A stretch of 64,000 bases of DNA from positions 248,001 to 312,000 of the forward strand of contig CAKUGR010000001.1 of assembly GCA_934654775.1 (NCBI GenBank), written 5' to 3'. Below are positions 9,183-41,938 of the stretch, piece by piece. This stretch comes from an uncultured Collinsella sp. (GTDB lineage: Bacteria > Actinomycetota > Coriobacteriia > Coriobacteriales > Coriobacteriaceae). Position 1 is the first letter of the stretch; every line of letters starts with the position of its first letter. Under the pieces are notes generated by a model. The model saw only the letters and a program-made list of their open reading frames with translations. It did not search any database and was not told where the DNA came from. The position numbers and the translations under genes are program-made.

Positions 9183-9214
9183 ACCGTTCGCGGCTGAAAA
9201 TCTACCGATTACCA
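9183..9214 (+). promoter_or_regulatory. 21-bp tandem motif, copy 1 (galK upstream)
   Basis: ACCGTTCG at 9183 and ACCGATTA at 9204, 21 bp apart, with GAAAATCT between. It belongs to the seven-copy family described under findings. Confidence 0.6.
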
Positions 9215-9245
9215 GATTCTCAAAAAGTGATATGCGTTGTGTTAT

Positions 9246-9257
9246 GAGTACGTTAAC
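9246..9257 (-). promoter_or_regulatory. LacI1 operator copy 2
   Basis: The same 12-mer as at 9123 in inverted orientation (GAGTACGTTAAC on the plus strand). With flanks it matches copy 3 at about 18 of 20 positions. Copies 1 and 2 are about 123 bp apart between centres. Confidence 0.65.
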
Positions 9258-9309
9258 ATAGCCCTTAACGTGCGGCATCGTGGATGCTGAGTTCACACCG
9301 CTTCAAATT

Positions 9310-9321
9310 GTTAACGTACTC
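9310..9321 (+). promoter_or_regulatory. LacI1 operator copy 3
   Basis: Third copy of GTTAACGTACTC, 45 bp before the galK start. Its position overlapping the likely promoter fits repression of galKT; copy 1 near lacI fits autoregulation or looping. Confidence 0.65.
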
Positions 9322-9366
9322 ATAACGACGCAAAACCCACCTGTTCGCGCCAAAGAAAGGACCCTC

Positions 9367-10572
9367 ATGACCGCCCCCGACGAAAAGACGCTCGCCACGC
9401 TCACCAAGCTGTTTGAGGAGGAGTTTGGCCCCATCGGCGACCGCCAGGTGCTCTATGTGCACGCGCCCGGCCGTTCCGAGATCAGCGGCAACCACACCGA
9501 CCACGAGGGTGGCCACGTCATCGCCGGCTCGCTCGACGTCGCCGTCGACGGCATCGCCGTGGCAACCGACACCAACAAGGTCCGCGTTGCCGACGAGGGC
9601 TACCCCACCTTTGAGATCACGCTCGACACGCTGGATGTTCAGGAGTCCGAGAAGGGCACGTCCGCGAGCCTCGTTCGCGGCATGGCCCATGAAGTTGCAG
9701 CCCTGGGCGTTGAGCCCCACGGCTTCGACTTTGCCTTCACCTGCTCCGTCCCCTCGGGCGGCGGCCTTTCCAGCTCCGCTGCCGTCGAGGCAGCATACGG
9801 CCGCGCCATGGAGACGCTCTGGGGCGCGCCCGCCATTGAGCCCGTCGCGCTTGCGCAGATGAGCCAGCGCACCGAGAACAACTACTACGGCAAGCCCTGC
9901 GGCCTGATGGACCAGGCTGCCGTGTGCCTGGGCGGCCTTGCCTACATGGATTTTGAGGACCAAGCTCAGCCTAAGACCCAGAAGCTCGAGCTCAACTTTG
10001 AGGATCATGGCTACGCGCTCGTGCTCGTTAAGGTTGGCGCCGACCATGTGGCAGCCACCGACGACTACGCCGCCGTTCCGCGCGAGATGCAGGATGTTGC
10101 CGCCGAGTTTGGCAAGGCGCGTCTGTGCGAGGTCGACGTTGCCGACTTTGACGCCAAGCTTCCCGAGCTGCGCGCCAAGCTGGGCGACCGCGCCTGCCTG
10201 CGCGCCGTTCACTACTGGTACGAGAACGGCCTGGTCGACAAGCGCTGGGCAGCCCTTAACGCCGGCGCCATCGACCAGTTCCTGGTCCTGACGCGCGAGT
10301 CCGGCGCCAGCTCTGCCATGTACCTGCAGAATGTCGTTGCCAAGCTGGGCTCCGAACAGCCCTCCATGTATGCCCTGGCACTGGCCGAGCACGTGCTCGA
10401 CGGCCGCGGCGCCGTCCGCATCCACGGCGGTGGCTTTGGCGGCACTATTCAGGCCTTCGTGCCGCTCGATCTGGTCGATACCTTCGTTACCAAGATGAAT
10501 GGCTGGCTGGGCGAGGGCTCTGCCCGTCACTACGCTATCTCTGACAAGGGGGCTTACGCGGCATGGCTGTAA
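9367..10572 (+). CDS. galK: galactokinase
   Basis: The ATG at 9367 follows AAAGAAAGGA and gives 401 residues. GHMP-kinase motifs are present: the galactokinase signature region GRSEISGNHTDHEGG near the N-terminus, the ATP-binding PSGGGLSSSAAVE, and the C-terminal RIHGGGFGGTIQ. It phosphorylates galactose at C1, the first step of the Leloir pathway. Its stop overlaps the galT start by 10 bp. The signature reads SEISGNHTDH instead of the more usual NLIGEHTDY form. Confidence 0.95.
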   Translation: MTAPDEKTLATLTKLFEEEFGPIGDRQVLYVHAPGRSEISGNHTDHEGGHVIAGSLDVAVDGIAVATDTNKVRVADEGYPTFEITLDTLDVQESEKGTSASLVRGMAHEVAALGVEPHGFDFAFTCSVPSGGGLSSSAAVEAAYGRAMETLWGAPAIEPVALAQMSQRTENNYYGKPCGLMDQAAVCLGGLAYMDFEDQAQPKTQKLELNFEDHGYALVLVKVGADHVAATDDYAAVPREMQDVAAEFGKARLCEVDVADFDAKLPELRAKLGDRACLRAVHYWYENGLVDKRWAALNAGAIDQFLVLTRESGASSAMYLQNVVAKLGSEQPSMYALALAEHVLDGRGAVRIHGGGFGGTIQAFVPLDLVDTFVTKMNGWLGEGSARHYAISDKGAYAAWL

Positions 10573-12191
10573 TGACCGACGTGCGCGAGGCTGCGCAGAA
10601 CCTGATCGAGTACGCCATCCACCGATCCATGATCGGACAGGACGACCGCATCTGGGCCTACAACACCATTCTTGAGTGCATTGGCGCCACGGGTCCCGCG
10701 CTCGACATGACCTGGGCGCTGCAGACCGAGAAGATTTCGCTTCTGCACCCCGACACGCTCCCCGACTTTGACCTTGAAGGCACGCTTGCCGCGCTTGCCG
10801 AGGCCGCCGTTGCCAACGGTGCTGCCGAGGACACGGCATCGGGCCGCGACCGCATCGCCATGCGCATCATGGGCGTGCTCATGCCGAGGCCTTCGGTTGT
10901 AAACGAGGAATTCAACGGCCGCATGGGTGTCAATGAGCCCCGCGCCGCGACCGACTGGTTCTACGGCCTGTGCTGCGACGCCGGCTATGTGCGCCGCGCC
11001 GCTATCGCGCGCAATATCAAATGGAGCACTTCCACCAACTGGGGTAACCTGGAGATCACCATCAACCTGTCCAAGCCCGAAAAGGACCCGCGCGACATTG
11101 CCGCGGCCGGTGCCGCAAAGAACACGGGCGAGAAGTATCCCGCCTGTCAGCTCTGCATCGAAAACGAGGGGTATCCCGGACGCTCCGCCGCAGCCGACGG
11201 CGGCGCTCACCCCGCCCGTCAGAACCTACGCGTTATTCCCATTCAGCTTAATGGCGAGCGCTGGGGCTTCCAGTACAGCCCGTATGCGTATTTTGACGAG
11301 CACTGCATCACGATGAGCTCCGAGCATCGTCCGATGCACGTCGACCGCAAGGGCCTGACCTGCCTGCTCGACTTTGTGGACCTATTCCCGCATTACTTCA
11401 TCGGCTCCAACGCCGACCTGCCCATCGTGGGCGGCTCGATCTTGTCGCACGACCACTTCCAGGGCGGCGCGCACGAGTTCCCCATGATGCACGCCGCCGA
11501 GGTCTCGCAGTTTAACGTGCCCGGTTTTGACCAGGTCAGCGGTACCGTGCTGCAGTGGCCGCTTTCGGTGCTGCGTCTGCGCTCACACGACCGCGCTCAG
11601 CTGCTCGACGCTGCTGAGAAGATCATCCTCGCCTGGCGCGAGTGGACCGACGAGTCCGTGGGCGTCATCGCGCACACGGCCGACGGCGTGGCACACAACA
11701 CCGTGACGCCCGTCATCCGCCGCGTCGACTCCCGCGGTAATGCCGGCGGCGAGATCTACGAGGCCTACCTGGCGCTTCGCTGCAACATCACGACCGACGA
11801 GCATCCACTGGGCGTGTTCCACCCACATGCCGAGTATCACCACATTAAGAAGGAGAACATCGGCCTGATCGAGGTCATGGGTCTGGCCATTCTTCCGCCC
11901 CGCTTGGTTCCCGAGCTCGGCGCCGTTCGCGAGCACCTGCTGGCAGCCAAGGTCGACGCCAGCTACGACCTTGCCGCCGCGCTCGAGGGCGACGACCTCT
12001 GCCGCAGCCACGCCGCATGGGCCCTGGACGTCTTTGCCCGTCGTGCCGATGAGCTGACGGCGGATAACGCTATCGACATCCTGCACGAGGAAGTCGGCGT
12101 GGTGTTTGGCCACGTGCTCGACAACGCCGGCGTCTTTAAGTGGGACGAAGCCGGCCGCGCCGCCCAGCAGCGCTTTATCGACTCGCTGTAG
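10563..12191 (+). CDS. galT: UDP-glucose--hexose-1-phosphate uridylyltransferase (class II)
   Basis: The 542-residue length and sequence fit the class II GalT family of Firmicutes and Actinobacteria, which is not the ~350-residue enterobacterial type. The active-site segment reads GGSILSHDHFQGG, with the His-x-His that forms the uridylyl intermediate. It exchanges galactose-1-phosphate with UDP-glucose. The start overlaps galK by 10 bp (ATGGCTGTAATG), so the two are translationally coupled. No galE is found in the window. Confidence 0.95.
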   Translation: MAVMTDVREAAQNLIEYAIHRSMIGQDDRIWAYNTILECIGATGPALDMTWALQTEKISLLHPDTLPDFDLEGTLAALAEAAVANGAAEDTASGRDRIAMRIMGVLMPRPSVVNEEFNGRMGVNEPRAATDWFYGLCCDAGYVRRAAIARNIKWSTSTNWGNLEITINLSKPEKDPRDIAAAGAAKNTGEKYPACQLCIENEGYPGRSAAADGGAHPARQNLRVIPIQLNGERWGFQYSPYAYFDEHCITMSSEHRPMHVDRKGLTCLLDFVDLFPHYFIGSNADLPIVGGSILSHDHFQGGAHEFPMMHAAEVSQFNVPGFDQVSGTVLQWPLSVLRLRSHDRAQLLDAAEKIILAWREWTDESVGVIAHTADGVAHNTVTPVIRRVDSRGNAGGEIYEAYLALRCNITTDEHPLGVFHPHAEYHHIKKENIGLIEVMGLAILPPRLVPELGAVREHLLAAKVDASYDLAAALEGDDLCRSHAAWALDVFARRADELTADNAIDILHEEVGVVFGHVLDNAGVFKWDEAGRAAQQRFIDSL

Positions 12192-12239
12192 GACGCGGCC
12201 TCGGACGCCTGCGCTCGATAAATAGCGCCCACACGACAA

Positions 12240-12278
12240 CGGCGCCCGCCGGCAACATAGCCGACGGGCGCCGTTTTT
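12240..12278 (+). terminator. rho-independent terminator of galKT
   Basis: A 14-bp GC-rich stem with one mismatch (12240-12253 and 12260-12273) is followed by five T residues. A near-identical hairpin follows galM at 30178. Confidence 0.85.
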
Positions 12279-12495
12279 GGTGCAAAGAAACCTGTCCCCC
12301 TTGCACCAAACCCTTGACAGCAATGAAAACGCCGATGTCTTGGCAACGCCAGCGAAAACCCACCAGAGTGAGCAAGGTGCCTTGAAGCGAAGCGGCATTG
12401 ACCTTCTGGTCATGCCGCTGAAGCTGAAAGGCAGATTGCCGCTCTGGTGGGTTTGCAGCATCGGCCCGTTACGCGGTTTGGTAAAACCGCGTAAC
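12276..12495. repeat. cluster of three hairpin repeats between galT and lacC1
   Basis: First, TTTGGTGCAA (12276-12285) pairs with 12301-12310 around a CCTGTCC loop. Second, outer arms 12356-12368 and 12442-12454 (13 bp perfect) enclose an inner hairpin AGCGGCATTGACC (12391-12403) with 12408-12419. Third, GTTACGCGGTTT (12468-12479) pairs with 12484-12495 directly behind the lacC1 stop and recurs almost unchanged at 14571-14598. The first two belong to the hairpin families seen elsewhere. No gene is visible in 12192-12496. Confidence 0.7.
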
Positions 12496-12496
12496 C

Positions 12497-13432
12497 TTAA
12501 AGCTCTACGACCTCAACGCTGTTGTAGACCTCGTCCCAGCGGTCCATGACCAGGTGGCCGGTCTTGGGATCCATGGCGTTGAGCTTGCCGCAAGTGTTAG
12601 CGGTCTTGAGTACGGTAACATCGTCGGCGCCGGCAGCAATGGCATGCGCAAAGCCGGCGATGGTCGAGTCACCGGAACCCGTCGCGTTCACGGCCGCAAT
12701 CGCGGGCGTCTTGGCGCGGAACGCGCGACCCTCATGAAAGCCCACCGAACCGGCAGCACCCATCGAAACGACAACCCAGGGAATACCGGCAAAGCGGCCA
12801 TCGAAGGCAAGCGCCTCGCGCAGGGCATCGACATCATCGGTCGTAAAGGACGTACCCAGCAGACCGTTAATCTCGGTCAGGTTGGGCTTTACGAGCTCAG
12901 GCTTAGCGTCGGACTCCAGCGCGGCCTCCAGCGATGCACCCGAGGTGTCGAGCAGCACCTTGGCGCCCGCCTCCTCGGCAATCTTGACGAGCTCGGCATA
13001 GTAGCCGGCATCGACGCCACGCGGCAGCGAGCCCGAAAGCGTCACAACGTCCGCCTTCGCTGCAAGCTCGGCGAACTTGGCAGTAAAGGCCTCGAGCTCG
13101 GCCGGGGCGATCTGCGGGCCGCTCTCCAGCAGCTCGGTCTGATTACCCTCGTGCAGAATATTCAGGCAAATGCGCGTCTCACCGGCGATGGGCACAAAGT
13201 CGTTCTTGACGCCGTCGGCATCCATAAGCTCGGCCATATAGGCACCCATGTGGCCTCCGAGCAGACCGGTTGCGAGCACGTCATCGCCCAGCTGCAGCAG
13301 CACACGGCTCACGTTGAGGCCCTTGCCACCAGCGGTCTTTTCGGGCGTCACGCGATTCACGTCGTCGATGATCAGCTTGTCGAGCTGATAGCGCGTATCA
13401 ATCGACGGGTTCATGGTAACGGTCAGAATCAT
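12497..13432 (-). CDS. lacC: tagatose-6-phosphate kinase (LacC, PfkB family), copy 1
   Basis: This 311-residue ribokinase-fold enzyme starts MILTVTMNPSIDTRY and contains TAGGKGLNVSRVL, the LLESGP segment and the PfkB C-terminal signature NATGSGDSTIAGFAH with its catalytic Asp. The N-terminal third closely resembles lactococcal LacC; 1-phosphofructokinase is the main alternative. It converts tagatose-6-phosphate to tagatose-1,6-bisphosphate. The ATG at 13432 has AGGAGATC upstream. It lies 56 bp behind lacX1 as the last gene of the lacA-lacB-lacX-lacC run, and has a close paralogue at 32080-33015. Confidence 0.88.
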   Translation of the reverse strand: MILTVTMNPSIDTRYQLDKLIIDDVNRVTPEKTAGGKGLNVSRVLLQLGDDVLATGLLGGHMGAYMAELMDADGVKNDFVPIAGETRICLNILHEGNQTELLESGPQIAPAELEAFTAKFAELAAKADVVTLSGSLPRGVDAGYYAELVKIAEEAGAKVLLDTSGASLEAALESDAKPELVKPNLTEINGLLGTSFTTDDVDALREALAFDGRFAGIPWVVVSMGAAGSVGFHEGRAFRAKTPAIAAVNATGSGDSTIAGFAHAIAAGADDVTVLKTANTCGKLNAMDPKTGHLVMDRWDEVYNSVEVVEL

Positions 13433-13488
13433 GTTGATCTCCTGTTTCCGGGGCACGACGTGTGCGTCCCCAAACATACGATAGCTCG

Positions 13489-14598: not shown

Positions 14599-14602
14599 CT
14601 CC

Positions 14603-15190: not shown

Positions 15191-15619
15191 TTAGGCCATC
15201 TTGTTGAGCATGTCGACACGGATCTGGTGACGACCGCCGGCGTACTGGGCGCGCAGGAACTCGCGGGCGATCTTCTTGGCGACCTCGGTGCCCACAACGC
15301 CCGGGCCCATGGTGACCATGCGCGAGCCATTGTGCTCGCGGGTCATGTAGGCGGAGCGCTCGTCGGAAATGTTGGCGACGACCATGCCCTTCATCTTGAC
15401 GGCGGCCATATAGGAACCGACGCCGTACTTATCGAAGGCAAAGCCCTGGGAATCCTTGTGCTCCAGCAGGTCCTTGGCGACGGCGGTCGCGGAATCGACA
15501 AAGTCCGCGGCAGGGGTCTCGGAATAGTCGACGACCTCGTGACCGTCGGCGATGAGCATCTCCTTGATGGACTCCTTCATCGACATACCGTCGGCATCGG
15601 AAGCGATTACAACCCTCAT
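15191..15619 (-). CDS. lacA: galactose-6-phosphate isomerase subunit LacA
   Basis: The 142-residue protein has the RpiB fold and usual LacA length: VVIASDADGMSMKESIKEML at the N-terminus, and FDKYGVGSYMAA in place of the RpiB active-site Cys loop, as expected for the non-catalytic partner. It starts at ATG 15619 with a clear AAGGAGGAT site. First gene of lacA-lacB-lacX-lacC. Confidence 0.93.
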   Translation of the reverse strand: MRVVIASDADGMSMKESIKEMLIADGHEVVDYSETPAADFVDSATAVAKDLLEHKDSQGFAFDKYGVGSYMAAVKMKGMVVANISDERSAYMTREHNGSRMVTMGPGVVGTEVAKKIAREFLRAQYAGGRHQIRVDMLNKMA

Positions 15620-15788: not shown

Positions 15789-15790
15789 TT

Positions 15791-15822
15791 ACCGTTCGCG
15801 GGTGTTTGTTGACCGTTTGGGC
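15791..15822 (+). promoter_or_regulatory. 21-bp tandem motif, copy 2 (lacA upstream)
   Basis: ACCGTTCG at 15791 and ACCGTTTG at 15812, 21 bp apart, about 170 bp before lacA. With the GAACA cluster this occupies the 305-bp gap 15620-15924, which holds no gene. Confidence 0.6.
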
Positions 15823-17144: not shown

Positions 17145-17483
17145 TTAGGCGAGCTTGGCCTCGAGATCGGCGATGCGCTTGTAGGCATCGATGGTAAAGC
17201 GGGTCTGCTTCTCCAGGATCATGGTGGTCATAAGGGTGTCCTGAGCGTGAGCCATGATGAAGGTCATCTCCATCTCGCCGCCGCCGGCCTCCTGCGAAAG
17301 CAGCTTGGTCTGCGTGTCGTGAGCACCGATGAGCGCGTCGCTGGCATCCTTGTGCAGCTGCTCGGCCTTCTCAAAGTCACCCTCACGGGCAGCATCGAGT
17401 GCAGCGAGCAGGTCGGTCTGGGCGTCACCCGCGTATGCGACGATCTCGAATCCAACCATCGAGATTTCTTCTTTGGTTGCCAT
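17145..17483 (-). CDS. lacF: PTS lactose-specific EIIA component
   Basis: The 112-residue helical protein matches lactose/cellobiose IIA. The phosphorylated histidine is His79 in FIMAHAQDTLM. It accepts phosphate from HPr and passes it to the IIB domain of LacE. It is the only IIA of this type in the window and probably serves both LacE proteins. It is monocistronic, with its own terminator and upstream copies of two putative operators. Confidence 0.93.
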   Translation of the reverse strand: MATKEEISMVGFEIVAYAGDAQTDLLAALDAAREGDFEKAEQLHKDASDALIGAHDTQTKLLSQEAGGGEMEMTFIMAHAQDTLMTTMILEKQTRFTIDAYKRIADLEAKLA

Positions 17484-17608
17484 ATTGCGTTCCTTTCACA
17501 TATGAACCAATGGAGAGCATCGCGTCCGGGCATACGCGCTGCGTTGTGTATGCCAGAAACATTAACATTCAAACAAAAAAGAACAATCCAAAACGCAATT
17601 TGAAGCTA

Positions 17609-17637
17609 TGAACGGTCGATTTTCACCCGTGAACGGT
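17609..17637 (-). promoter_or_regulatory. 21-bp tandem motif, copy 3 (lacF upstream)
   Basis: On the minus strand ACCGTTCA occurs at 17637-17630 and again at 17616-17609, an exact 21-bp repeat with GAAAATCG between. This is the best copy of the family and points toward lacF. Confidence 0.65.
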
Positions 17638-17650
17638 TTTTAAACTATTC

Positions 17651-17666
17651 TGAACAATATCGAACA
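17651..17666 (+). promoter_or_regulatory. putative LacR operator upstream of lacF
   Basis: TGAACAATATCGAACA matches the lacA-upstream 16-mer at 15728 in 13 of 16 positions, including both GAACA units 10 bp apart. Confidence 0.45.
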
Positions 17667-18791: not shown

Positions 18792-18823
18792 TACGCTCAC
18801 CACCCAAAACCTACCGTTCACCG
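18792..18823 (+). promoter_or_regulatory. 21-bp tandem motif, copy 4 (lacE1 upstream)
   Basis: TACGCTCA at 18792 and ACCGTTCA at 18813, 21 bp apart. The first half matches the consensus at six of eight positions. A further inverted CGAACGGT lies at 18839-18846. Confidence 0.5.
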
Positions 18824-19057: not shown

Positions 19058-20830
19058 ATGGAGCAACTCATCGCCACCATCGAAAAGGGCCAGCCCCTTT
19101 TCAACGCGATCGCCCGCAACAAGTACCTCAAGGCGATCCGCGACGGCTTTATCTCCGTCATCCCCATCATCATCTTCTCGTCCATCTTCTGCCTGGTGGC
19201 CTCGGTCCCCAACATCTGGGGTTTCTACTGGCCCGATGACATCAACAACGCTCTGTGGAAGTGCTACAACTACTCCATGGGCATCCTGGCCATCGCCTGC
19301 GCCGCCACCACGGCCAAGCACTTCGCCGACGCTCAGAACCGCGATCTGCCCAAGAATAACCAGATCAACTTCATCTCCTGCATGTGCGCGGCCATCATCG
19401 GCTTCCTGCTGCTTTCGAGCGACACGATCTCCACGGATGCCGCCAGCGGCTTCAACACCACCTACCTTGGCTCCAAGGGCCTGCTGACCGCCTTCATCGC
19501 TGCGTTTGTGACTGGCATCATCTACAAGTTCTTCATTAAGCGCAACATCACCGTCAAGATGCCCGAGCAGGTTCCGCCCAACATCTCGCAGACCTTTAAG
19601 GACATCATCCCCTTCTCCGTCTGCATCACCGTCTTTTGGGTCTTTGACATCGTCTTCCGCTCTGCCTTTGGCTTCTGCTTTGCCCAGGGCGTCATCCAGG
19701 TGTTCCAGCCCTTGTTCACCGCTGCCGACGGCTACATCGGCCTCGCTGTGATCTACGGCGCTATGAGCCTCTTCTGGTTCGTCGGTGTCCACGGCCCCTC
19801 GATCGTCGAGCCTGCCATCGCCGCCGCCCTCGTTGCCAACATGACCGACAACCTGGCTGCTTACCAGGCCGGTCAGCACGCTTCTGCCGTCCTGACGCAG
19901 GGCGCCCAGTACTTCGTCGTCTGCATGGGCGGCACCGGCGCCACGCTCGTCCTCGTCTTCATGTTCTGCTTCCTGGCTAAGTCCCAGGAGATGCGTGCGG
20001 TCGGTAAGGCCTCCATCGTCCCGGTCTGCTTCGCCGTCAACGAGCCGCTGCTGTTCGCCGCGCCCATCGTGCTCAACCCCGTCTTCTTTGTCCCGTTTGT
20101 CTTTGCCCCGATCGCCAACGTCTGGATCCTCAAGGTCTTTATCGACTTCCTGGGCATGAACGGCTTTATGTACACCCTGCCTTGGACCGTTCCCGGCCCC
20201 ATCGGCACCATCATGGGCCTGGGCTTCCAGCCGCTCGCCTTTGTGATGCTCGCCGTCATCCTGGTCGTCGACTTCCTTCTGTACTACCCGTTCTTCCGTG
20301 CCTATGACGCCCAGAAGTGCGCCGAGGAGGCCGAGATTTCCCAGGAGGAGCTCGCCGCCAAGAACGCTGAGAAGGCTGCCAAGCTCAACGATGCCTTCCA
20401 GGGCAAGGCCGATGCCAAGAGCGTTGCCGACGGCGCTGCCGCCGAGGCCGTGAAGGCCGACGCCCCCGCTGCTGCAGCCCCCGCTGCCGAGGCAACGACC
20501 GCCAGCGACCTTAACGGCAAGCGCGTGCTCGTGCTCTGCCAGGGTGGCGGCACCTCGGGCCTGCTCGCCAACGCGCTGGCCAAGGCCGCCAAGGAGCGCG
20601 GTATCGACCTGGAGACCGCTGCCGACGCCTATGGCAACCACGTGGATATGCTCCCCGACTTTGACCTGGTCGTCCTGGCCCCGCAGGCCGCGAGCTACTT
20701 GGCAGACCTGCAGAAGGACTGCGAACGCGTGGGCAACAAGTGCGTCGCCTGCCGCGGTAAGCAGTACATCGAGCTCTCCCAGAACGGCGACAAGTCTCTC
20801 GCCTTCGTGAGTGAGCAGCTCTCGAAGTAA
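19058..20830 (+). CDS. lacE: PTS lactose-specific EIICB, copy 1
   Basis: The 590-residue protein has an N-terminal IIC domain of about ten membrane segments (residues ~25-415; VGVHGPSIVEP and AVNEPLLFAAP are typical of the lactose/cellobiose/chitobiose family). An Ala/Glu-rich linker (~430-480) follows, then a C-terminal IIB domain whose phosphorylated residue is Cys494 in VLVLCQGGGTSG. It imports and phosphorylates lactose or a related beta-galactoside. The start has TTAGGAG upstream. lacG1 follows after a terminator. Confidence 0.92.
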   Translation: MEQLIATIEKGQPLFNAIARNKYLKAIRDGFISVIPIIIFSSIFCLVASVPNIWGFYWPDDINNALWKCYNYSMGILAIACAATTAKHFADAQNRDLPKNNQINFISCMCAAIIGFLLLSSDTISTDAASGFNTTYLGSKGLLTAFIAAFVTGIIYKFFIKRNITVKMPEQVPPNISQTFKDIIPFSVCITVFWVFDIVFRSAFGFCFAQGVIQVFQPLFTAADGYIGLAVIYGAMSLFWFVGVHGPSIVEPAIAAALVANMTDNLAAYQAGQHASAVLTQGAQYFVVCMGGTGATLVLVFMFCFLAKSQEMRAVGKASIVPVCFAVNEPLLFAAPIVLNPVFFVPFVFAPIANVWILKVFIDFLGMNGFMYTLPWTVPGPIGTIMGLGFQPLAFVMLAVILVVDFLLYYPFFRAYDAQKCAEEAEISQEELAAKNAEKAAKLNDAFQGKADAKSVADGAAAEAVKADAPAAAAPAAEATTASDLNGKRVLVLCQGGGTSGLLANALAKAAKERGIDLETAADAYGNHVDMLPDFDLVVLAPQAASYLADLQKDCERVGNKCVACRGKQYIELSQNGDKSLAFVSEQLSK

Positions 20831-23816: not shown

Positions 23817-25574
23817 ATGGACGCCATCGTAAAGATGCTCGAGAAGCATCAGCCGTTCTTTGAGAAGATCTCGAGGAACATCTATCTCCAGGCCATTAAG
23901 GACGGATTCCTTGGGTGCATGCCCATCGTCCTCACCTCTTCGATCTTCCTGCTGATCGCCACGCTTCCCGGCGTGGTCGGCATCACGTTGCCTCAACCGC
24001 TCATCGACTGGTGCAACAAGCTGTACAACTTCACCATGGGTGTCATGGGCATCATGGTTGCCGGCACCACCGCCAAGAACTTCACGGCATCCATGAACCG
24101 CCGTATGCCCGCCGGCAAGGTGCTCAACGACGGCTCCACCATGGTTGCTGCCCAGTGCAGCATGCTTTTGCTCGCTGTTACGCAGTTCACCACCAAGCTC
24201 GACGGCTCCGAGCTCTCGGTCTTCGATTGCACCAGCATGGGTACGCGCGGTCTGTTCTCGGCCTATATCGCCGCGTTCATTACCGTGTGGGTCTATAAGT
24301 TCTGCGTCTCGCGCGATCTGACCATTAAGCTGCCCAAGGAGGTTCCGGGCGCCATCGCTCAGAACTTCCGCGACATTATCCCCTTTGGCGGCGCCGTCAT
24401 CATCTGCGGCATCATCGATGTCGTCGTGCGCAACCTCATGGGCGTTCCGTTCTCCGAGCTGCTTATCAAACTGCTCTCCCCGCTCTTTACCGCTGCAGAA
24501 ACCTATCCTGGCCTTATCCTTATTCAGGCAGCCACCGCGTTCTTCTGGTTCATCGGCGTCCACGGTCCCTCGATCGTCCAGCCGGGCATCGACCCCATCC
24601 GTCTTGCCAACCAGGCCGAGAACCTGCAGGTTCTGCTGGCCGGCGGCCACCCCGCCCACTCCCTCACCTTTAACATGTCGCTCGTGGGCGAGTTCGGCGG
24701 CACCGGCGCCACGTTCATCGTGCCGCTTCTGCTGATCCTCTTTATGAAGTCCAAGCAGCTCAAGGCCGTCGGTAAGGCCTCGATTGTTCCTGTTGCCTTC
24801 GCCGTTAACGAGCCGCTGCTCTTTGGCGCGCCGATGATCCTCAACCCCTACATGCTCATCCCCTTTGTCGCCGCCGGCTGCGTCAACGTGAGTGTTGCCA
24901 AGTTCTTTATCGATAATGTGGGCATGAACGGCTTCTCCTTCGTGGTGCCTTGGGCTACCCCCGCCCCCATCGGCATCTTTATCACCACGAACTTCCAGCT
25001 CATCGCTTTGGTGTTTGTCGCAATCATCATCTTGCTGGACGCCATCATCTACCTGCCGTTCTTAAAGGCCTACGATAAGCTGCTCTGCGATCAGGAGGCC
25101 GAGCGCGCCGCCGAGCTGGGCCTCGAGTCCGATGGCGCCGCTGCCATCGCTGCCAGCGCGCCTGCACCCGCCGTCGAGACGACCGCCGCTGCCGTCGACA
25201 GCGAGCCTGTCGCCGATCAGCCCGAGCCCGCCGCCGACGCATCCGCTAAGAAGGACGTCGATGGCCTGAAGGTCCTCGTCCTGTGCGCCGGCGCCGGCAC
25301 CTCCGCCATGCTCGCCAACGCCATTAAGGAAGGCGCCGCGCAGACCGGCGAGAACATCGCCTCCTCCGCAGGTGCCTACGGTCAGCACACCGCCATCATG
25401 GATCAGTACGACGTTATCGTGCTCGCTCCGCAGGTTCGCAGCTACTACAACGACATGAAGGCCGATACCGACCGTCTGGGTATTAAGCTGCTCGCCCCGC
25501 GTGGCAAGGAATACATCGACCTTACCCGCGACCCCGCCGGCGCCATCAAGTGGCTCCGCGAGAACCTCGACTAA
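23817..25574 (+). CDS. lacE: PTS lactose/beta-galactoside EIICB, copy 2
   Basis: This 585-residue paralogue of the 19-kb LacE has the same IIC membrane domain (VHGPSIVQPGID, AVNEPLLFGAP), an Ala/Pro/Glu-rich linker (~420-480) and a IIB domain with Cys490 in VLVLCAGAGTSA. AAAGGAG precedes the ATG. No IIA gene is adjacent, so LacF at 17 kb is the probable donor. Its substrate may differ from lactose, since it has its own repressor and hydrolase. Confidence 0.9.
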   Translation: MDAIVKMLEKHQPFFEKISRNIYLQAIKDGFLGCMPIVLTSSIFLLIATLPGVVGITLPQPLIDWCNKLYNFTMGVMGIMVAGTTAKNFTASMNRRMPAGKVLNDGSTMVAAQCSMLLLAVTQFTTKLDGSELSVFDCTSMGTRGLFSAYIAAFITVWVYKFCVSRDLTIKLPKEVPGAIAQNFRDIIPFGGAVIICGIIDVVVRNLMGVPFSELLIKLLSPLFTAAETYPGLILIQAATAFFWFIGVHGPSIVQPGIDPIRLANQAENLQVLLAGGHPAHSLTFNMSLVGEFGGTGATFIVPLLLILFMKSKQLKAVGKASIVPVAFAVNEPLLFGAPMILNPYMLIPFVAAGCVNVSVAKFFIDNVGMNGFSFVVPWATPAPIGIFITTNFQLIALVFVAIIILLDAIIYLPFLKAYDKLLCDQEAERAAELGLESDGAAAIAASAPAPAVETTAAAVDSEPVADQPEPAADASAKKDVDGLKVLVLCAGAGTSAMLANAIKEGAAQTGENIASSAGAYGQHTAIMDQYDVIVLAPQVRSYYNDMKADTDRLGIKLLAPRGKEYIDLTRDPAGAIKWLRENLD

Positions 25575-28128: not shown

Positions 28129-28893
28129 CTAGCAAATGACCCGCGTGTGTTCCTCGATGGCGGCACGATCCTCGGCGGTAATACCCGGCTCGCACACCAC
28201 GGCGTCCAAATTGTCCAGGCGGCAGAAGGTATAGAAGTCGCGCTTGCCGATCTTGCTGGAGTCGGCGATCAGATAGCGCGAGTCTGCCTTGCTAAAAGCG
28301 AGCTGCTGGATACGGCCCTCATCCATGTTTGACGTAGACACGTCGCCATCCAGAATGCCGTTGGCGCCGATAAACGCCGCATCGATGCCCAGCGCGCGAA
28401 GGGTATCCTCGGCCGTTGGTCCCACAAAAGCGGCGGTGCGGCGACGGTACACACCGCCCACGAGGCACAAGTCGCAGTCCTCGCGCGCCTCGAGCAGGTT
28501 AAACACCGAAAGCGAATTGGTCACAATGCGCAGGCGAAACGTCGGCAGCATCGAGGCCATCTGCTCAACCGTGGTGCCCGTACCCAAAAAGATGGTCGAG
28601 TCTTCCTCGATAAGCTCCACAGCACGGCGCGCAATCTGCAGCTTTTCCTCGGCATGCTTAGTTCGCTTTTCGCTGTGCGAATACTCATGGCGCAGCATAG
28701 CGTGCGGACGGCCCTGTGCACTGCGGGCTCCGCCGTGCACGCGCTCGATCTCGCCCAGGCTCGCAAGTTCCTCAAGGTCGCGGCGAATCGTCATGTCCGA
28801 AACGCCCAGCGCATCAGAAATCTCTTTGACCGAGACCGTGCCCTGCTCCTCGAGCAGCTGCCGAACCTTATCCTGTCGCTCCGCTTTAATCAC
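28129..28893 (-). CDS. lacR: lactose phosphotransferase repressor LacR-like (DeoR family)
   Basis: The start is GTG 28893 with GAGGA upstream, giving 254 residues, the length of LacR. The N-terminal helix-turn-helix reads VSVKEISDALGVSDMTIRRDL, followed by ERVHGGAR. The DeoRC domain has IFLGTGTTVEQMA, RIVTNSLSVFNLL, LVGGVYRRRTAAFVGP and IQQLAFSKADSRYLIADSSK, closely resembling lactococcal LacR. LacR represses lac PTS operons and is released by tagatose-6-phosphate. It is a good candidate for the GAACA-type sites before lacA and lacF. Confidence 0.82.
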   Translation of the reverse strand: MIKAERQDKVRQLLEEQGTVSVKEISDALGVSDMTIRRDLEELASLGEIERVHGGARSAQGRPHAMLRHEYSHSEKRTKHAEEKLQIARRAVELIEEDSTIFLGTGTTVEQMASMLPTFRLRIVTNSLSVFNLLEAREDCDLCLVGGVYRRRTAAFVGPTAEDTLRALGIDAAFIGANGILDGDVSTSNMDEGRIQQLAFSKADSRYLIADSSKIGKRDFYTFCRLDNLDAVVCEPGITAEDRAAIEEHTRVIC

Positions 28894-29098
28894 GATGAGT
28901 CCTCGCTGTTCCACGCTCACGTCAATCCAAACAGTAACGAACAAATTGTATCAGAATCGCGCGCGCTAAAAATGAGCGCCCACACAGCCCAAATCATCAC
29001 TTTTTTGAGAAAAATACCCCCTGCTTTAGTGGGGTGTAGTGATAATCTCGCCTGTTCGCGCTACAGTTTGTCCGGAATACCTCGATGTTAGGAACTAA

Positions 29099-36045: not shown

Positions 36046-36063
36046 CCTTACAGGGGGACGCGA

Positions 36064-37230: not shown

Positions 37231-37291
37231 TTCTAATACCTCTCTCTAGAAGTAATCCTCTGACGTGCAATTATACACTTCGGTTGGTTAT

Positions 37292-37305: not shown

Positions 37306-37344
37306 TTAAATGCAAAGAATCATCACATGAAACCACTGGGGACG

Positions 37345-38076
37345 CTAAACGTTGCGCTGGTGATAAACCTTGTATTTAAACTGATCGGCACGAGCAACCG
37401 AGAGGGTATACTCCACAACCTCGTTTGACTCGTTATACGTAGTCCTGACCAAATCGAGCACGGGCGAGCCCTCGACGATGCCCAAGAGATGGGCGTCGGT
37501 GGGACGGGCTATGCTCGCATAGAACTCCTCTTCGGCCACGCGTATCTTTTGCTGAAAGTCTTGTTCAATCACATCGTAAAGCGGCTTGCGCTCCAGAAGC
37601 GGTCGCTTGAGAGACAGAAATTGACGAACCGGTAGATAGCTGCGTTCGACCATCATGGGCATGTTGTCGGCAGAGCGAAGGCGCTTGAGCTTAAAGATAC
37701 GGTCACCGATGCGGCATCCCATATGCTCGGCCAGATTCTTATCGGCCTCCATCTCGCAAAACTCGAGAATCGTAGTCTCTGGATCGCGACCCATCGCACG
37801 CATCTGCTCGGTAAAGCTGTAGGACTGCATAAGGTTGGTTGCTTTTGCCGAACGGTCGGTCACAAAGGTACCGCGACCGTGCTGCCGAACCACCAGTCCC
37901 AAACGCTCCAGCTCCTGCAGAGCCAGACGTACCGTGGTGCGCGAGAGACCATAGCGCTCCGAAAGTTCGCGCTCGGAAGGAATCATGTCACCGGCGTGAT
38001 ATTCGTGGTCAATCTTTTCGGTCAGAATATCGACCAGCTGATCGTACAGCGGTTGCTTGCGCGCTCCGATCGCCAT
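37345..38076 (-). CDS. GntR/HutC-family repressor of the GalNAc genes (AgaR/NagR-like)
   Basis: The 243-residue protein has a GntR winged helix (residues ~8-75: PLYDQLVDILTEKI, MIPSERELSERYGLSRTTVRLALQEL, GRGTFV) and a UTRA effector domain (residues ~90-240, with VERSYLP and YDVIEQDF). UTRA domains of this group sense GlcNAc-6-phosphate or GalN-6-phosphate. It lies between agaS and the PTS operon, and TGGTAGTAACCA sites precede both. Autoregulation is possible. Confidence 0.88.
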   Translation of the reverse strand: MAIGARKQPLYDQLVDILTEKIDHEYHAGDMIPSERELSERYGLSRTTVRLALQELERLGLVVRQHGRGTFVTDRSAKATNLMQSYSFTEQMRAMGRDPETTILEFCEMEADKNLAEHMGCRIGDRIFKLKRLRSADNMPMMVERSYLPVRQFLSLKRPLLERKPLYDVIEQDFQQKIRVAEEEFYASIARPTDAHLLGIVEGSPVLDLVRTTYNESNEVVEYTLSVARADQFKYKVYHQRNV

Positions 38077-38156
38077 CCTATCCTCCCTTTTGCTCGAATT
38101 CAGCTACTACTTAGGGTGTTTAGCATTATCTGACTGCTACACCCGAATCATCAAGA

Positions 38157-38194
38157 AAACAAAAGCCGCGCGCTCTTTCGAGCACGCGGCTTTT
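38157..38194 (-). terminator. terminator of the PTS operon
   Basis: AAAAGCCGCGCGCTC (38161-38175) pairs with 38180-38194 (one mismatch), with T residues on the minus strand, 67 bp behind the IID stop. Confidence 0.83.
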
Positions 38195-38260
38195 AACATA
38201 CACACGGCTTAAGGGGTCGGGGTGTGAGCCGCGTAGGGACACACCCCTCAAGCTAGAGCC

Positions 38261-39343
38261 TTACCAGATGCTCGGCCAGAGACCAAGCGGGCCAGCGCCC
38301 AGGATGCCCAGCACGAAGAGCAGGAGAATGCCCTTGGTCGGGGTCCAGCTGTGCTTAGCGAACATGTAGTAAAGCAGCAGCGTAAGCAGCAGCGGGACGA
38401 GCTTGGGGACGATGGTGTTGAGGGTGTCGGCAACGGAGAAGTTGACCGGATCCTCGGTAACGGTGCCGTAGGTGACGGACTCCATGCCGTTACCCAGATC
38501 GGTGACGCCGCACGGGACAGCATTGCCGTCGGCATCGGTGGCGGTGAGGGCGTCGCCGTCCTCATTAGTCATGGCGATGGTGCCGGCCTCGGCGGTCTCG
38601 GTGTCGATGCCCTCCATACCGGTGAAGTTCTCGGCCTCCTTCTCGGAGACGATCACGGTAGTAGCGGACAGGCCACGAGTGGTGCCGTTGGGGATCTGGA
38701 GGTTGATCTGGGTGCCACCCATGGTGACGACCAGGCAACCGACGACGAAGACGCCCATGATGGAAGCGGCGCGGGTGAAGGCCTGCATGTTGGCGGTCAG
38801 AGCGTCAATGGCGCTGGTGCCAAGCTTGTAGGACCAGTTCATAAGCCAGAAGCGCAGAGCGAACTGGACGGCGTTGAAGATCACCAGGAAGATGATCGGC
38901 GCAGCGGCGTTGCCGTTGATGGCCATGTTGGAGGTGATGCCGGCCGTGATAGGCACGAGCGTCAGCCAGAACAGGGCGTCACCGATACCACCAAGCGGGC
39001 CCATTGCGGCGACGCGGACGGCGCGGATCGTGGGGATGTCAACCTTGTTCTGCTCGAGCGAAAGCACGATGCCCATAACAAAGGTGACGAGGAACGGGTG
39101 GGTGTTGAAGAACTCCAGGTTGTGGCTCATGGAAGCCGCGAGGTCGTTCTTGTTGGTGTGGATCTTCTCCAGACCGGGGATGATGGAGTAGAGCCAGCCA
39201 GCAGCCTGCATACGCTCGTAGTTGAACGATGCCTGCAGGAAGCAGGAGCGCCAAGCCATCTTGTTGAGGGTCTTCTGGTCGAGCTGCGGAGCAGGAGTGA
39301 GATCCTCGTAGTGCTCCGGGATCACATACTCATTAGATGCCAT
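38261..39343 (-). CDS. PTS mannose/GalNAc-family EIID
   Basis: ATG 39343 with GGAGGTGA upstream gives about 360 residues. EIID features include WRSCFLQASFNYERMQAAGWLYS, MGPLGGIGDALFW and a C-terminal membrane helix region (LVPLLLTLLLYYMFAK). Compared with usual ~275-residue IIDs there is an extra acidic Thr/Gly-rich insert of roughly 80-90 residues (about residues 225-310). The gene overlaps IIC by 11 bp. Confidence 0.88.
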   Translation of the reverse strand: MASNEYVIPEHYEDLTPAPQLDQKTLNKMAWRSCFLQASFNYERMQAAGWLYSIIPGLEKIHTNKNDLAASMSHNLEFFNTHPFLVTFVMGIVLSLEQNKVDIPTIRAVRVAAMGPLGGIGDALFWLTLVPITAGITSNMAINGNAAAPIIFLVIFNAVQFALRFWLMNWSYKLGTSAIDALTANMQAFTRAASIMGVFVVGCLVVTMGGTQINLQIPNGTTRGLSATTVIVSEKEAENFTGMEGIDTETAEAGTIAMTNEDGDALTATDADGNAVPCGVTDLGNGMESVTYGTVTEDPVNFSVADTLNTIVPKLVPLLLTLLLYYMFAKHSWTPTKGILLLFVLGILGAGPLGLWPSIW

Positions 39344-40133
39344 CTTCGAAGTCACCTCCGTCAGAAACAGCTGCACCCTTCAGCTCGGTCTGCTGCTGGA
39401 AGTCCCAGAAAGCGATGCCGAAGCCGATGAGAGCAAGGATGAGCAGGGCAGGGGTTGCCAGAGAATCGTTGGCAACGGTGATGAGCGCGAGGCCAAAGCC
39501 CATGAGGAAGAAGCCCCACATATCGCGGTTCATCATAACCTTGAGCAGGACGGCGAAGCCGACGAAGCGCATCATGCCGCCTGCAGCGGAGAGACCGGTC
39601 TGCAGCCAGGTCGGGATGGCGGAAGCGATGGTCTGACCGATGGTGGCGCCAGCGATGAAGAACAGGGTGACGACGACAGCGAAGATCAGGCCGAGCAGAG
39701 CCATGGCGAAGTAGTTCAGACGCTCGATACCCTTGGTGTCAGCGTTGTGAGCCATGTTGTCCGCGGAGGACATAAGCGGCGACATAAGCGTGAAGACCAG
39801 GGTGACGCCGAGCTGGCCGAGCAGAGCGAACGGAATGGCAAGGCCGACAGCCGCGTTGGGCTCGAGGCCCGTGGCGATTGCGAGAATGGCTGCCATGATG
39901 CCGCCGATAACGGCGTTAGGCGGCTGAGCGCCTCCGATCGGCATGTTGCCGATCGTCATGAGCTGATAGGTACCACCCACGAGAAGACCGGTGTTGAGGT
40001 CGCCAAGGATAAGACCGATGACGGCGCCGGTGACGATGGGCTGATAGAGAGACTCGAGGAAGTTGAACTGGTCGATTGCCGCGATGAACGTGACGACGAA
40101 GACCAGAGCGACCTGGATGATCGAGTATTCCAT
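39333..40133 (-). CDS. PTS mannose/GalNAc-family EIIC
   Basis: ATG 40133 with AAAGGAGGAG upstream gives 266 residues. Multiple membrane helices and the family motif GGTYQLMTIGNMPIGGAQPPN are present. With IID it forms the sugar channel of the mannose-family PTS. It lies 88 bp behind IIB and overlaps IID by 11 bp. Confidence 0.92.
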   Translation of the reverse strand: MEYSIIQVALVFVVTFIAAIDQFNFLESLYQPIVTGAVIGLILGDLNTGLLVGGTYQLMTIGNMPIGGAQPPNAVIGGIMAAILAIATGLEPNAAVGLAIPFALLGQLGVTLVFTLMSPLMSSADNMAHNADTKGIERLNYFAMALLGLIFAVVVTLFFIAGATIGQTIASAIPTWLQTGLSAAGGMMRFVGFAVLLKVMMNRDMWGFFLMGFGLALITVANDSLATPALLILALIGFGIAFWDFQQQTELKGAAVSDGGDFEDGI

Positions 40134-40220
40134 CTTGCTCCTCCTTTCAAAATGTATGTACGCACTTGGATTCACGTACAGAATGTCAGGGTTTCATTCC
40201 TGACAACGTGGATACGAGGA

Positions 40221-40703
40221 TTACGAGAAGAGCTTGCTCGTGTCCTCAACAGGCGTGCTCGGAACGCGCCTGATCTCCAACTCCACCCCCAATTCCTGCA
40301 GCTCTTTAAACGCAGCGACATCCTCGTCGTTAACTGCGACGGAGGTGGCGACTTGGCGCTTTCCTTCCGACATGTGCATGTTGCCGATGTTTACCTTCTT
40401 TATAGGCACACCGCCCTTGACGAGCGTAAGCACGTCTTCCGGTGTTTCGGCCACGATGAAGATCTTCTGGCGCGGGCTCGCCTTGCCAATGACGTCGATG
40501 GTCTTCTGCAGAGAGAAGAAACGCGTAGCGACGCCGGTGGGAGCGGCCATCTTCATGAGGTTCTGGCGCATGGTGTTGGTCGACACGTCGTCATTGGCGA
40601 CGAGGATGAGGTTGGAGCCCAGGGTGGAGTTCCACTGGGTGGCAACCTGACCATGAACCAGTCGGTTATCGATGCGGGTAAGAAGAATGTTGGGTTCTGC
40701 CAT
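40221..40703 (-). CDS. PTS mannose/GalNAc-family EIIB
   Basis: The 160-residue cytosolic IIB has the phosphorylated His17 in LLTRIDNRLVHGQV, plus VANDDVS and LVKGGVPIKKVNIGNMH. It passes phosphate from IIA to the sugar. It lies 37 bp behind the YajC-like gene. The paralogue at 30478 has Tyr instead of His17. Confidence 0.92.
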   Translation of the reverse strand: MAEPNILLTRIDNRLVHGQVATQWNSTLGSNLILVANDDVSTNTMRQNLMKMAAPTGVATRFFSLQKTIDVIGKASPRQKIFIVAETPEDVLTLVKGGVPIKKVNIGNMHMSEGKRQVATSVAVNDEDVAAFKELQELGVELEIRRVPSTPVEDTSKLFS

Positions 40704-40739
40704 GTTGATCAGCTTCCTTTCGTTGATTGCTGACGACAG

Positions 40740-41021
40740 TTACTTGATCTCCTGAATCGCGTAACGCGAGACATCTACGACGGCACCGGATCGAACTTTG
40801 ATTTGGACCTTATCGCCTTCGATGCCCTTGACGGTTCCGTAGATACCGCCGGCGAAAAGGACCTCCTGACCCGGCTTGAGCTCGGTGTGCAGCTCTTTGA
40901 AGTACTTCTGCTTCTTCTTCATGTTGATCTGAGACCAGATAGTGTAAATGACACCCATGATGACGAGCAGACCCAAAAGAGCGACCGAGGAGCTCAGGAC
41001 GCTGGCTCCGAAATCGGCCAT
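40740..41021 (-). CDS. YajC-like small membrane protein within the PTS operon
   Basis: The 93-residue protein has one N-terminal membrane helix (VALLGLLVIMGVIYTIW, about 12-30), a basic stretch MKKKQKYFKEL and the YajC beta-domain (LKPGQEVLFAGGIYGTVKGI, then VQIKVRSGAVVDVSR). YajC normally belongs to the Sec accessory complex beside secDF. Here it is coupled to IIA by a TAATG overlap and followed by IIB, so it is probably a PTS-dedicated paralogue; its role there is unknown. Confidence 0.85.
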   Translation of the reverse strand: MADFGASVLSSSVALLGLLVIMGVIYTIWSQINMKKKQKYFKELHTELKPGQEVLFAGGIYGTVKGIEGDKVQIKVRSGAVVDVSRYAIQEIK

Positions 41022-41464
41022 TAGATGCCGTCCTCGTCGCCGAAGATATCCTCTTCCTCGGCACCAGCAACGGAGGCGACCGTCTGGGCGGTGATGCCCG
41101 TCTGGCCAACGGTCACCGCCTGCTCGCCAAGCTCGGCGAGCGTGGCATTGCCGCGGAGGAACAGGAGCTCAATAACCATGGGAAGGTTGGTGCCGGTCAG
41201 AACCTCGACGTTGTCGACATCCTGGGCAATCATCATCGACTGATTGAAGGGGGTACCGCCAAGCAGGTCGGTAAAGACGAGCACGCCATCGCACTCCTCA
41301 CGCATAGCGGTAATGGCGGCGCGAAGATCCTCACCGTAGGAGGCAGCCTGGTCGCCCTCGAAAGGAACGACGGTAAAAGCGGGCTGGTCGCCAGCGACCA
41401 TAGCGATAGCGCTTGCAAGGCCGGGTGCAAACTGTCCATGACCGGTAAGAATAAAGCCAACCAT
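41021..41464 (-). CDS. PTS mannose/GalNAc-family EIIA
   Basis: The 147-residue protein has the IIA-Man fold: FILTGHGQFAPGL with phosphorylated His9, FEGDQAASYGEDL and VFTDLLGGTPFNQS. First gene of the operon IIA-yajC-IIB-IIC-IID. The C-terminus is extended and acidic (GAEEEDIFGDEDG). Confidence 0.92.
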   Translation of the reverse strand: MVGFILTGHGQFAPGLASAIAMVAGDQPAFTVVPFEGDQAASYGEDLRAAITAMREECDGVLVFTDLLGGTPFNQSMMIAQDVDNVEVLTGTNLPMVIELLFLRGNATLAELGEQAVTVGQTGITAQTVASVAGAEEEDIFGDEDGI

Positions 41465-41563
41465 TCAAATTTCCCTTCCGAAGGTGTGTACGATCTGAGT
41501 TCGATGGTTTTCGGAAGCCAGCGGGCGGGTGCCCTTAAAGCTTCTTGGAAAGCGTTCTTTGAA

Positions 41564-41594
41564 GACCAGTGGTCTCTCAACTGGTAGTAACCAC
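41564..41594. promoter_or_regulatory. GntR (AgaR-like) operator upstream of the PTS operon
   Basis: CTGGTAGTAACCAC at 41581-41594 shares 13 of 14 bases with the agaS site, and a second dyad GACCA-G-TGGTC lies at 41564-41574. They are about 100-130 bp before the IIA start, near a TATAGT box (minus strand, 41611-41616). Confidence 0.6.
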
Positions 41595-41667
41595 GTGACG
41601 TGTTGTTGTCACTATATCACCCCAGAAGAGGTCGCTTTCGTTGATTCATACAGTAAAACGTTTTTGC

Positions 41668-41699
41668 ACCGCTCACGGCAAAAAATCGACCGTTTACCG
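41668..41699 (+). promoter_or_regulatory. 21-bp tandem motif, copy 6 (GalNAc PTS upstream)
   Basis: ACCGCTCA at 41668 and ACCGTTTA at 41689, 21 bp apart, with AAAATCG between. Confidence 0.6.
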
Positions 41700-41887
41700 C
41701 TCGTTAACACTTCTACCTGCGGTTTTGAAATCGTTTCGAAATGATTCGGCGTCTGATCGGGTCTTGCTCTGCGTCTAAACAACGTAGGGTGGCTAAAAAT
41801 AGCATGTAGAAAAATTGCAGGTCATTATGAAGATTTGTGAATTGGTCTTTTTAACTTAATACCAGTTAGAACCAGTTTTGAGATTAT

Positions 41888-41938
41888 CGGTGAACGGTAG
41901 TTTTTGACCGTTCACCGGAAAATTGCAATCGTTTACAG
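41888..41938 (+). promoter_or_regulatory. 21-bp tandem motif, copy 7, with an inverted partner
   Basis: ACCGTTCA at 41907 and ATCGTTTA at 41928 are 21 bp apart. In addition CGGTGAACGGT (41888-41898) forms a perfect 11-bp dyad with 41907-41917. The 636-bp stretch 41465-42100 holds these sites and no gene. Confidence 0.6.

What the first reader, a model, noticed from the sequence alone, without database searches (positions are those of the whole stretch)
9183..41938. Seven copies of a 21-bp-spaced tandem motif in front of galactose, lactose and GalNAc genes
An 8-9 bp unit, ACCGTTCAC (with variants), appears twice with a start-to-start distance of exactly 21 bp at 9183/9204, 15791/15812, 17630/17609 (minus strand), 18792/18813, 23614/23635, 41668/41689 and 41907/41928. 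The middle is also conserved (roughly GG..AAAATCG). All copies lie upstream of galK, lacA, lacF, lacE1, lacE2 or the GalNAc PTS operon. I did not see the tandem upstream of the housekeeping genes. These promoters have different local repressors (three LacI, a LacR, a GntR), so this points to one extra, shared regulator of galactoside and amino-sugar uptake. Direct half-sites two helical turns apart are the AraC-family pattern, and an AraC gene lies at 2708-3640.
Basis: partly seen in the sequence, partly recalled or inferred. Interest (0 to 1): 0.85.

Follow-up and report, generated by a model that had tools for sequence, protein, structure and literature searches.

The report
LytTR-type switch for sugar operons
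A repeated DNA tag in front of many sugar-uptake genes of a gut bacterium looks like the landing site of a LytTR-type two-component regulator, a protein class better known for small gene sets, which here may govern much of the cell's carbohydrate use.

Summary
The tandem is real and lies at all seven stated places; unit pairs at 21 bp exceed every other distance and all 40 shuffles. It is not local: 35 of 35 genus genomes have it, with a 12-bp spacer in 87 of 94 matches, and in complete genome G107 29 of 32 hits are intergenic, 23 of them beside PTS, sugar or arginine genes. The AraC reading fails: 15 of 24 genomes that keep the lacF box lack the AraC gene. The anatomy (9-bp direct repeats, 12-bp spacer, A-rich centre) is that of a LytTR box. 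A matrix from 66 relatives' sites ranks the published E. coli BtsR site 2nd of 89,934 positions; in six clostridial loci perfect copies sit at LytTR genes. Best candidate binder: a conserved BtsS/BtsR-like pair. Of 14 genomes with a single LytTR gene, 8 have this one and boxes, 5 (one family) have it without boxes, 1 has boxes without it. No clear fixed distance to a -35 element and no binding data. Most likely a global carbohydrate/energy regulon under a LytTR two-component system; activation and signal are inferred.

The parts
9183..9212 (+). tandem box, pointing at galK (start near 9367 by my codon model, 155 bp downstream)
   Evidence: (33.5 bits)
15791..15820 (+). weak tandem box 172 bp upstream of lacA (15191-15619, -), pointing away from it
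   Evidence: 20.9 bits; ortholog L013 in G001
17608..17637 (-). tandem box, pointing at lacF (17145-17483, -)
   Evidence: 35.9 bits; kept with 3 or fewer mismatches in 24 of 26 lacF-homolog loci
17650..17658 (-). third, degenerate unit 21 bp upstream of the lacF tandem
18792..18821 (+). tandem box, pointing at lacE1 (19058-20830); first unit has 3 mismatches
   Evidence: 32.4 bits
23614..23643 (+). tandem box, pointing at lacE2 (23817-25574)
   Evidence: 33.9 bits
41668..41697 (+). tandem box 204 bp upstream of the GalNAc-type PTS operon (first gene 41021-41464, -), pointing away from it
   Evidence: 33.7 bits; same place and orientation in G001 (L005)
41907..41936 (+). second tandem box of the same intergenic region
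   Evidence: 32.0 bits; L006 in G001
41889..41898 (-). perfect inverted single unit facing the 41907 box (back to back, 8-bp gap)

Best explanation
Each copy is a LytTR box: two 9-bp direct repeats (ACCGTTCAC) separated by 12 bp with an A-rich centre, bound by two LytTR domains. The most likely binder is the response regulator of a BtsS/BtsR-like two-component system conserved in the order (RR at L060:803-1507, kinase at L060:1592-2923 in G001). When its kinase is active, the phosphorylated regulator is expected to bind, mostly 90-190 bp upstream of start codons, before many PTS, sugar-catabolism and arginine-deiminase genes and to raise their expression, on top of the local LacI, DeoR and GntR repressors. 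Shown here: the motif, its spacing, its promoter distribution in relatives, the similarity to the BtsR site, and the presence of the pair in relatives. Inferred: that this regulator binds it, that it activates, and that the signal is a central-metabolism or energy cue.
For: Anatomy matches published LytTR sites: repeats of 9-11 nt with 11-13 nt spacers; the oligonucleotide given for the E. coli YehT (BtsR) site at yjiY/btsT parses (my parsing) as 9-12-9 with AAAAT in its spacer (passages of PMC4847170; tables of PMC6193735). A matrix from 66 sites of relatives ranks that site 2nd of 89,934 positions in 45 kb of E. coli (8.4 bits, weaker than coriobacterial sites); the first is inside hsdR. In a blind exact search of public genomes 7 of 119 loci hold a LytTR ORF; in 6 of them, 6 of the 12 loci with clostridial titles, the box lies at the LytTR gene or LytTR/kinase operon, and L313 reads box-10 bp-TTGAAA-17 bp-TATAAT. 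The core regulator has receiver + LytTR domains and 33% identity to BtsR. Orthologs in 25 of 26 genomes; kinase homolog in 11 of 12. Eight genomes whose single LytTR gene is the core one carry boxes, G079 11 of them. G107: 29 of 32 hits intergenic by my gene model, 15 of 15 at 2 or fewer mismatches; 13 sites point only at a gene, 3 only away (G001: 10 and 5).
Against: No clear fixed distance to a -35 element: 39 of 78 sites have a promoter-like pair downstream against 32.7 in shuffles; only 6 of 78 have it at 9-11 bp, the LytTR activator position, against 2.0 expected. Some sites, three in the window, point away from the nearest operon. No tandem with 3 or fewer mismatches in the 14 kb holding the core operon of G001. 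Family f2 has the core regulator but almost no boxes: 13 hits in 48 genomes (control 11); five f2 genomes have the core as their only LytTR and no box. G181 has 6 hits but neither core gene, though it is 96% complete in 100 contigs. In G033 and G120 (f2) regulator and kinase homologs are far apart. G153's single hit is at control level. The window's own assembly is not held, so the pair's presence there is inferred.
Confidence: 0.7

Rival explanations
1. It is a LytTR box, but bound by another LytTR regulator (the paralogous pair at L060:6808-8971 or the AgrA-like one at L029), or by several in common.
For: G001 has three LytTR genes; the paralog regulator is as close to BtsR (35%) as the core one (33%); the perfect boxes in Clostridia go with LytTR proteins that do not look like orthologs of the core one (my reading); G181 has boxes and one LytTR that is not the core.
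Against: Eight genomes have only the core LytTR and still carry boxes: G079, G059, G135 and G105 with 11, 6, 5 and 5 hits, the other four with 1 to 3.
Confidence: 0.15
2. A global regulator of another family (OmpR-type response regulator, CRP/FNR type or other) binds the tandem.
For: Global regulators of sugar genes are usually CcpA or CRP (recalled); I know of no LytTR protein with such a regulon; promoter geometry is not clearly the LytTR standard; family f2 has the core regulator without boxes.
Against: Unit sequence, 9-12-9 spacing and A-rich centre coincide with BtsR and other LytTR sites; no further repeat at 10-11 bp inside the spacer (columns), which OmpR-type proteins commonly use (recalled).
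Confidence: 0.1
3. The AraC-family protein at 2708-3640 binds the tandem.
For: An AraC gene with an AraC_binding domain is there; AraC proteins can use direct half-sites two turns apart (recalled).
Against: Ortholog in 9 of 43 genus genomes, two of them split, while the box is kept without it in 15 of 24; the regulon looks too broad for a local activator.
Confidence: 0.02
4. The local DeoR-type LacR (28129-28944) binds the tandem, since lactose and GalNAc catabolism meet at tagatose-6-phosphate.
For: DeoR-type protein confirmed; pathway logic (recalled).
Against: In relatives the box stands before fructose-type PTS, uronate and arginine genes. The distribution of this DeoR gene itself was not searched.
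Confidence: 0.02

Closest known systems
E. coli BtsS/BtsR (YehU/YehT) and its btsT (yjiY) site
   Same: Site 9-12-9 with similar units and A-rich spacer; regulator receiver + LytTR; kinase GAF + His_kinase + HATPase.
   Different: Kinase shows no 5TM-5TMR_LYT membrane domain, the region in which BtsS binds pyruvate (PMC10653868, abstract and passages); here tens of sites per genome, whereas btsT is the target named for BtsR in the passages I saw.
LytTR Regulatory Systems (HdrRM, BrsRM) and other LytTR regulators
   Same: 9-bp direct repeats, mostly with 12-bp spacer (PMC6193735 passages and tables).
   Different: Those boxes sit 4-11 bp upstream of the -35 of their own operons; coriobacterial boxes show no clear fixed distance and none was found near the core operon of G001.
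CcpA/HPr kinase and CRP global carbon control (recalled)
   Same: Breadth of the regulon: PTS, sugar catabolism, arginine deiminase.
   Different: Different type of binding site. HPr kinase was not found in 10 of 10 genomes, but the control search did not list B. subtilis, which has it (recalled), so absence is not established; CcpA and CRP were not searched.

Membership tests
LytTR-type binding site | two repeats of 9-11 nt with an 11-13 nt spacer | tested here: met
   87 of 94 genus matches have a 12-bp spacer out of 21 allowed lengths; definition from PMC4847170
LytTR-type binding site | unit resembles an established LytTR site | tested here: met
   matrix ranks the E. coli BtsR site 2nd of 89,934 positions
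LytTR-type binding site | LytTR regulator encoded in the same genome | tested here: met
   192 of 197 genomes of the order; window's own genome not held
LytTR-type binding site | box about 10 bp upstream of a -35 element (LRS promoters) | tested here: inconclusive
   6 of 78 sites at 9-11 bp vs 2.0 in shuffles; no single dominant distance; seen by eye in Clostridial L313, L316, L321
LytTR-type binding site | direct binding by a LytTR protein | not testable with these tools
   -
BtsS/BtsR-type two-component system | regulator = receiver + LytTR | tested here: met
   PF00072 and PF04397
BtsS/BtsR-type two-component system | kinase with GAF, His_kinase, HATPase_c | tested here: met
   PF13492, PF06580, PF02518; 28% identity to BtsS
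BtsS/BtsR-type two-component system | kinase with 5TM-5TMR_LYT domain (LytS family) | tested here: not met
   found in E. coli BtsS, no match in the core and paralog kinases at E 1e-5
BtsS/BtsR-type two-component system | response to pyruvate | not testable with these tools
   -
AraC-family operator of 2708-3640 | co-occurrence of box and gene | tested here: not met
   15 of 24 genomes keep the lacF box without the gene
CcpA/HPr-kinase system | HPr kinase present | tested here: inconclusive
   0 of 10 genomes, but the control did not list B. subtilis

The most novel reading that the evidence does not exclude
In Coriobacteriaceae-like gut bacteria a LytTR two-component system has taken the place of CcpA/CRP as the global switch for carbohydrate and arginine energy metabolism, with a kinase that lacks the pyruvate-binding membrane domain and reads an intracellular signal through its GAF domain.
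Probability: 0.35. Interest if true: 0.78.

Novelty: new variant of a known kind. Interest (0 to 1): 0.62.

Why it matters
How these gut bacteria choose among lactose, mucin and plant sugars seems little described: my paper searches (listings and abstract beginnings only) showed no account of a shared sugar regulator in them. If right, one conserved two-component system and one readable DNA tag would predict a large part of that regulon in many genomes at once, and LytTR regulators would gain a case of global carbon control. It makes the question directly testable with one purified protein.

Tried and rejected
AraC and LacR as binders: set aside on the distribution of the box; the LacR gene's own distribution was not searched. 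Chance or a coding repeat: rejected for the set as a whole, though two pairs at 21 bp (18309, 36259) and the matrix hit 52278 do lie in coding sequence. Fixed -35 spacing as proof of activation: looked for, at most a small excess at 9-11 bp (6 of 78 against 2.0). HPr kinase absence: the control did not list B. subtilis, so not used. G164 gene context: my codon model, trained on the window, missed most genes of that genome, so its count (1 of 27 in coding) is not used; for G105 8 of 10 hits lay in the stretches fetched (8 of 8 intergenic). One search used a mistyped pattern (20-bp spacing with AAA) and found nothing; corrected. Several first Pfam and NCBIfam submissions were of the wrong strand; the other strands were run. 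A search of solved structures with the LytTR domain gave only 3d6w at E 0.0017. Of 30 lacF-homolog loci fetched I used the 26 with 67% identity or more and left out four at 35-40%.

Full report
OBSERVATION. The mean at the 70 other distances is 0.27, and 40 shuffles gave 0.275 on average (maximum 1). The remaining two copies (15791, 18792) have 3 mismatches in one unit; all seven score 20 bits or more on a matrix from 66 sites of other genomes, where 20 shuffles gave none.

ORTHOLOGOUS PROMOTERS. The window's assembly is not held; the nearest genome, G001, shares 28% of sampled 31-mers. I took lacF homologs from 43 genomes of that genus without reference to the motif and looked upstream in the 26 loci with 67% identity or more (of 30 fetched). 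In 24 of 26 the tandem is kept at exactly 21 bp with 3 or fewer mismatches; one has 5 mismatches, one has none with 5 or fewer. Over 22 distinct promoters aligned without gaps (the window's own included, the most divergent, L146, left out) the two units are 99% conserved, the spacer 88%, the 60 bp upstream 89% and the 80 bp downstream 94%. Across the 43 genomes a search with exact degenerate units and any spacer from 4 to 24 bp gave 94 matches in 35 genomes (2 for the reversed control), 87 of the 94 with 12 bp (my count of the listing; sites shared by descent are counted in each genome).

GENOME-WIDE DISTRIBUTION. G001 has 26 tandems at 3 or fewer mismatches against 6 for the reversed control, 3 of the 26 in coding sequence. 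The complete genome G107 has 32 against 3; by my gene model 29 of 32 are intergenic, and 15 of 15 with 2 or fewer mismatches. Of these 29 I place 23 beside PTS, sugar or arginine genes: lacF (two overlapping pairs), lacE1, lacE2 and galK (by likeness to the window), a fructose-type PTS, an FGGY kinase, two PTS EIIBC genes (one 1,049 bp away), a mannose-type PTS, glucuronate isomerase, gluconate 5-dehydrogenase, a glucose-type IIA protein, two PRD antiterminators, argininosuccinate synthase, two neighbouring arginine-deiminase genes with three boxes (one gene confirmed as PF02274, the other by its identical start), and four proteins named only by models below their cut-offs (alpha-galactosidase-like, fructoselysine-deglycase-like, sugar-binding and isomerase-like). 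Six sites have other, unnamed or no neighbours within reach (L156, L167, L170, L172, L173, L179). This looks like a general carbohydrate/energy regulon, not a galactoside one. Over 197 genomes of the order (2 or fewer mismatches) 111 have a match; family f1, which holds the genus, has 356 hits in 48 genomes (48 of 48; reversed control 7), f5 80 in 49 (control 8), f2 13 in 48 (control 11, 8 of them in G165) (sums, controls by hand).

WHAT BINDS IT. The AraC protein is set aside by distribution: 7 full-length and 2 contig-split orthologs in 43 genomes, and 15 of the 24 genomes that keep the lacF box lack it. Local repressors do not explain boxes before unrelated operons. The box has the form of LytTR sites: 9-11 nt repeats, 11-13 nt spacer (PMC4847170, passages). 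It resembles listed LytTR sites such as ACCACTTAC-12 bp-ACCACTTAC (PMC6193735, passages and tables) and above all the E. coli YehT/BtsR site, which I parse from a published oligonucleotide as ACCGCTTAC-N12-ACCACTCAG with an AAAAT centre. A matrix trained on 66 coriobacterial sites, scanned over 45 kb of E. coli, puts that site 2nd of 89,934 positions at 8.4 bits; the first, at 9.1, lies in hsdR. Six of the seven are among the 12 loci with clostridial titles, and there a box lies just before or after the LytTR gene or LytTR/kinase operon, in L321 448 bp after it; L313 has TTGAAA and TATAAT in ideal position. The seventh (Arthrobacter, L239) has its LytTR ORF over 1 kb away and is not counted as support.

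THE CANDIDATE. G001 has three LytTR genes. One, L060:803-1507, has an ortholog in 25 of 26 genomes tried; a kinase homolog is found in 11 of 12, adjacent to the regulator in 8 of the 10 where both were placed (not in G033 and G120). Both genes are missing in G181, a 96%-complete draft that has 6 boxes. Among the 26 genomes, 14 have a single LytTR gene: in 8 (G067, G079, G135, G059, G153, G105, G061, G117) it is the core one and there are 1 to 11 boxes (G153's single hit equals its control); in 5 of family f2 (G092, G120, G151, G179, G194) it is the core one and there is no box; in G181 it is not the core one and there are boxes. The regulator is receiver + LytTR and 33% identical to BtsR. The kinase has GAF, His_kinase and HATPase domains and is 28% identical to BtsS, but shows no 5TM-5TMR_LYT domain, where BtsS binds pyruvate (PMC10653868, abstract and passages). 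A different signal is therefore likely.

MECHANISM AND ITS WEAK POINTS. In G107, 13 intergenic sites point only at a gene, 3 only away, 11 lie between divergent genes and 2 have no gene within 450 bp; in G001 the numbers are 10, 5, 6 and 2. Of 24 same-direction distances to the start codon in G107, 20 lie between 88 and 191 bp. This bias suggests an upstream activator. Against it, there is no clear fixed distance to a -35 element: 39 of 78 distinct sites have a promoter-like pair downstream against 32.7 in shuffles, 6 of them at 9-11 bp against 2.0. Three of the window's sites point away from their operon, and no tandem with 3 or fewer mismatches was found in the 14 kb holding the core operon in G001. 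Family f2 has the regulator but not the boxes, so the site may have changed there or the regulon may be small. Binding, sign and signal are inferred, not shown.

NOVELTY. Paper searches for Collinsella or Coriobacteria with LytTR, sugar PTS, catabolite repression or regulon terms (listings and abstract beginnings seen) showed no description of this regulon; the library lacks most subscription papers. LytTR boxes and BtsSR-like systems are known; a genome-wide carbohydrate regulon under one is, as far as I could see, not.

Noticed in passing
window 40740-41021 (-): A YajC-domain gene lies inside the mannose-family (GalNAc-type) PTS operon, between IIA and IIB.
   Followed up: no
window 1298-2221 (+): One ORF carries both a NUDIX and a Vsr (mismatch endonuclease) domain.
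   Followed up: no
window 52278-52307 (-): Matrix hit of 30.2 bits inside the comF-like reading frame; a reminder that coding hits occur.
   Followed up: yes
L321 2283-2312 and 2551-2580; L169: In an Oscillospiraceae MAG two tandem boxes lie between a LytTR/kinase operon and an argG-like gene; in G107 a box also precedes argG.
   Followed up: no
G042, G095, G184: In these genus members the exact-unit search found only spacers of 11 or 13 bp; G042 and G184 have 6 and 5 LytTR genes, G095 only 1.
   Followed up: no
G165: The reversed control pattern has 8 hits in this genome, far above all others; unexplained.
   Followed up: no
L153 and L168 (G107 318400-326400): Two neighbouring arginine-deiminase genes, each with a tandem box 120 bp upstream, plus a third box pointing away.
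   Followed up: partly
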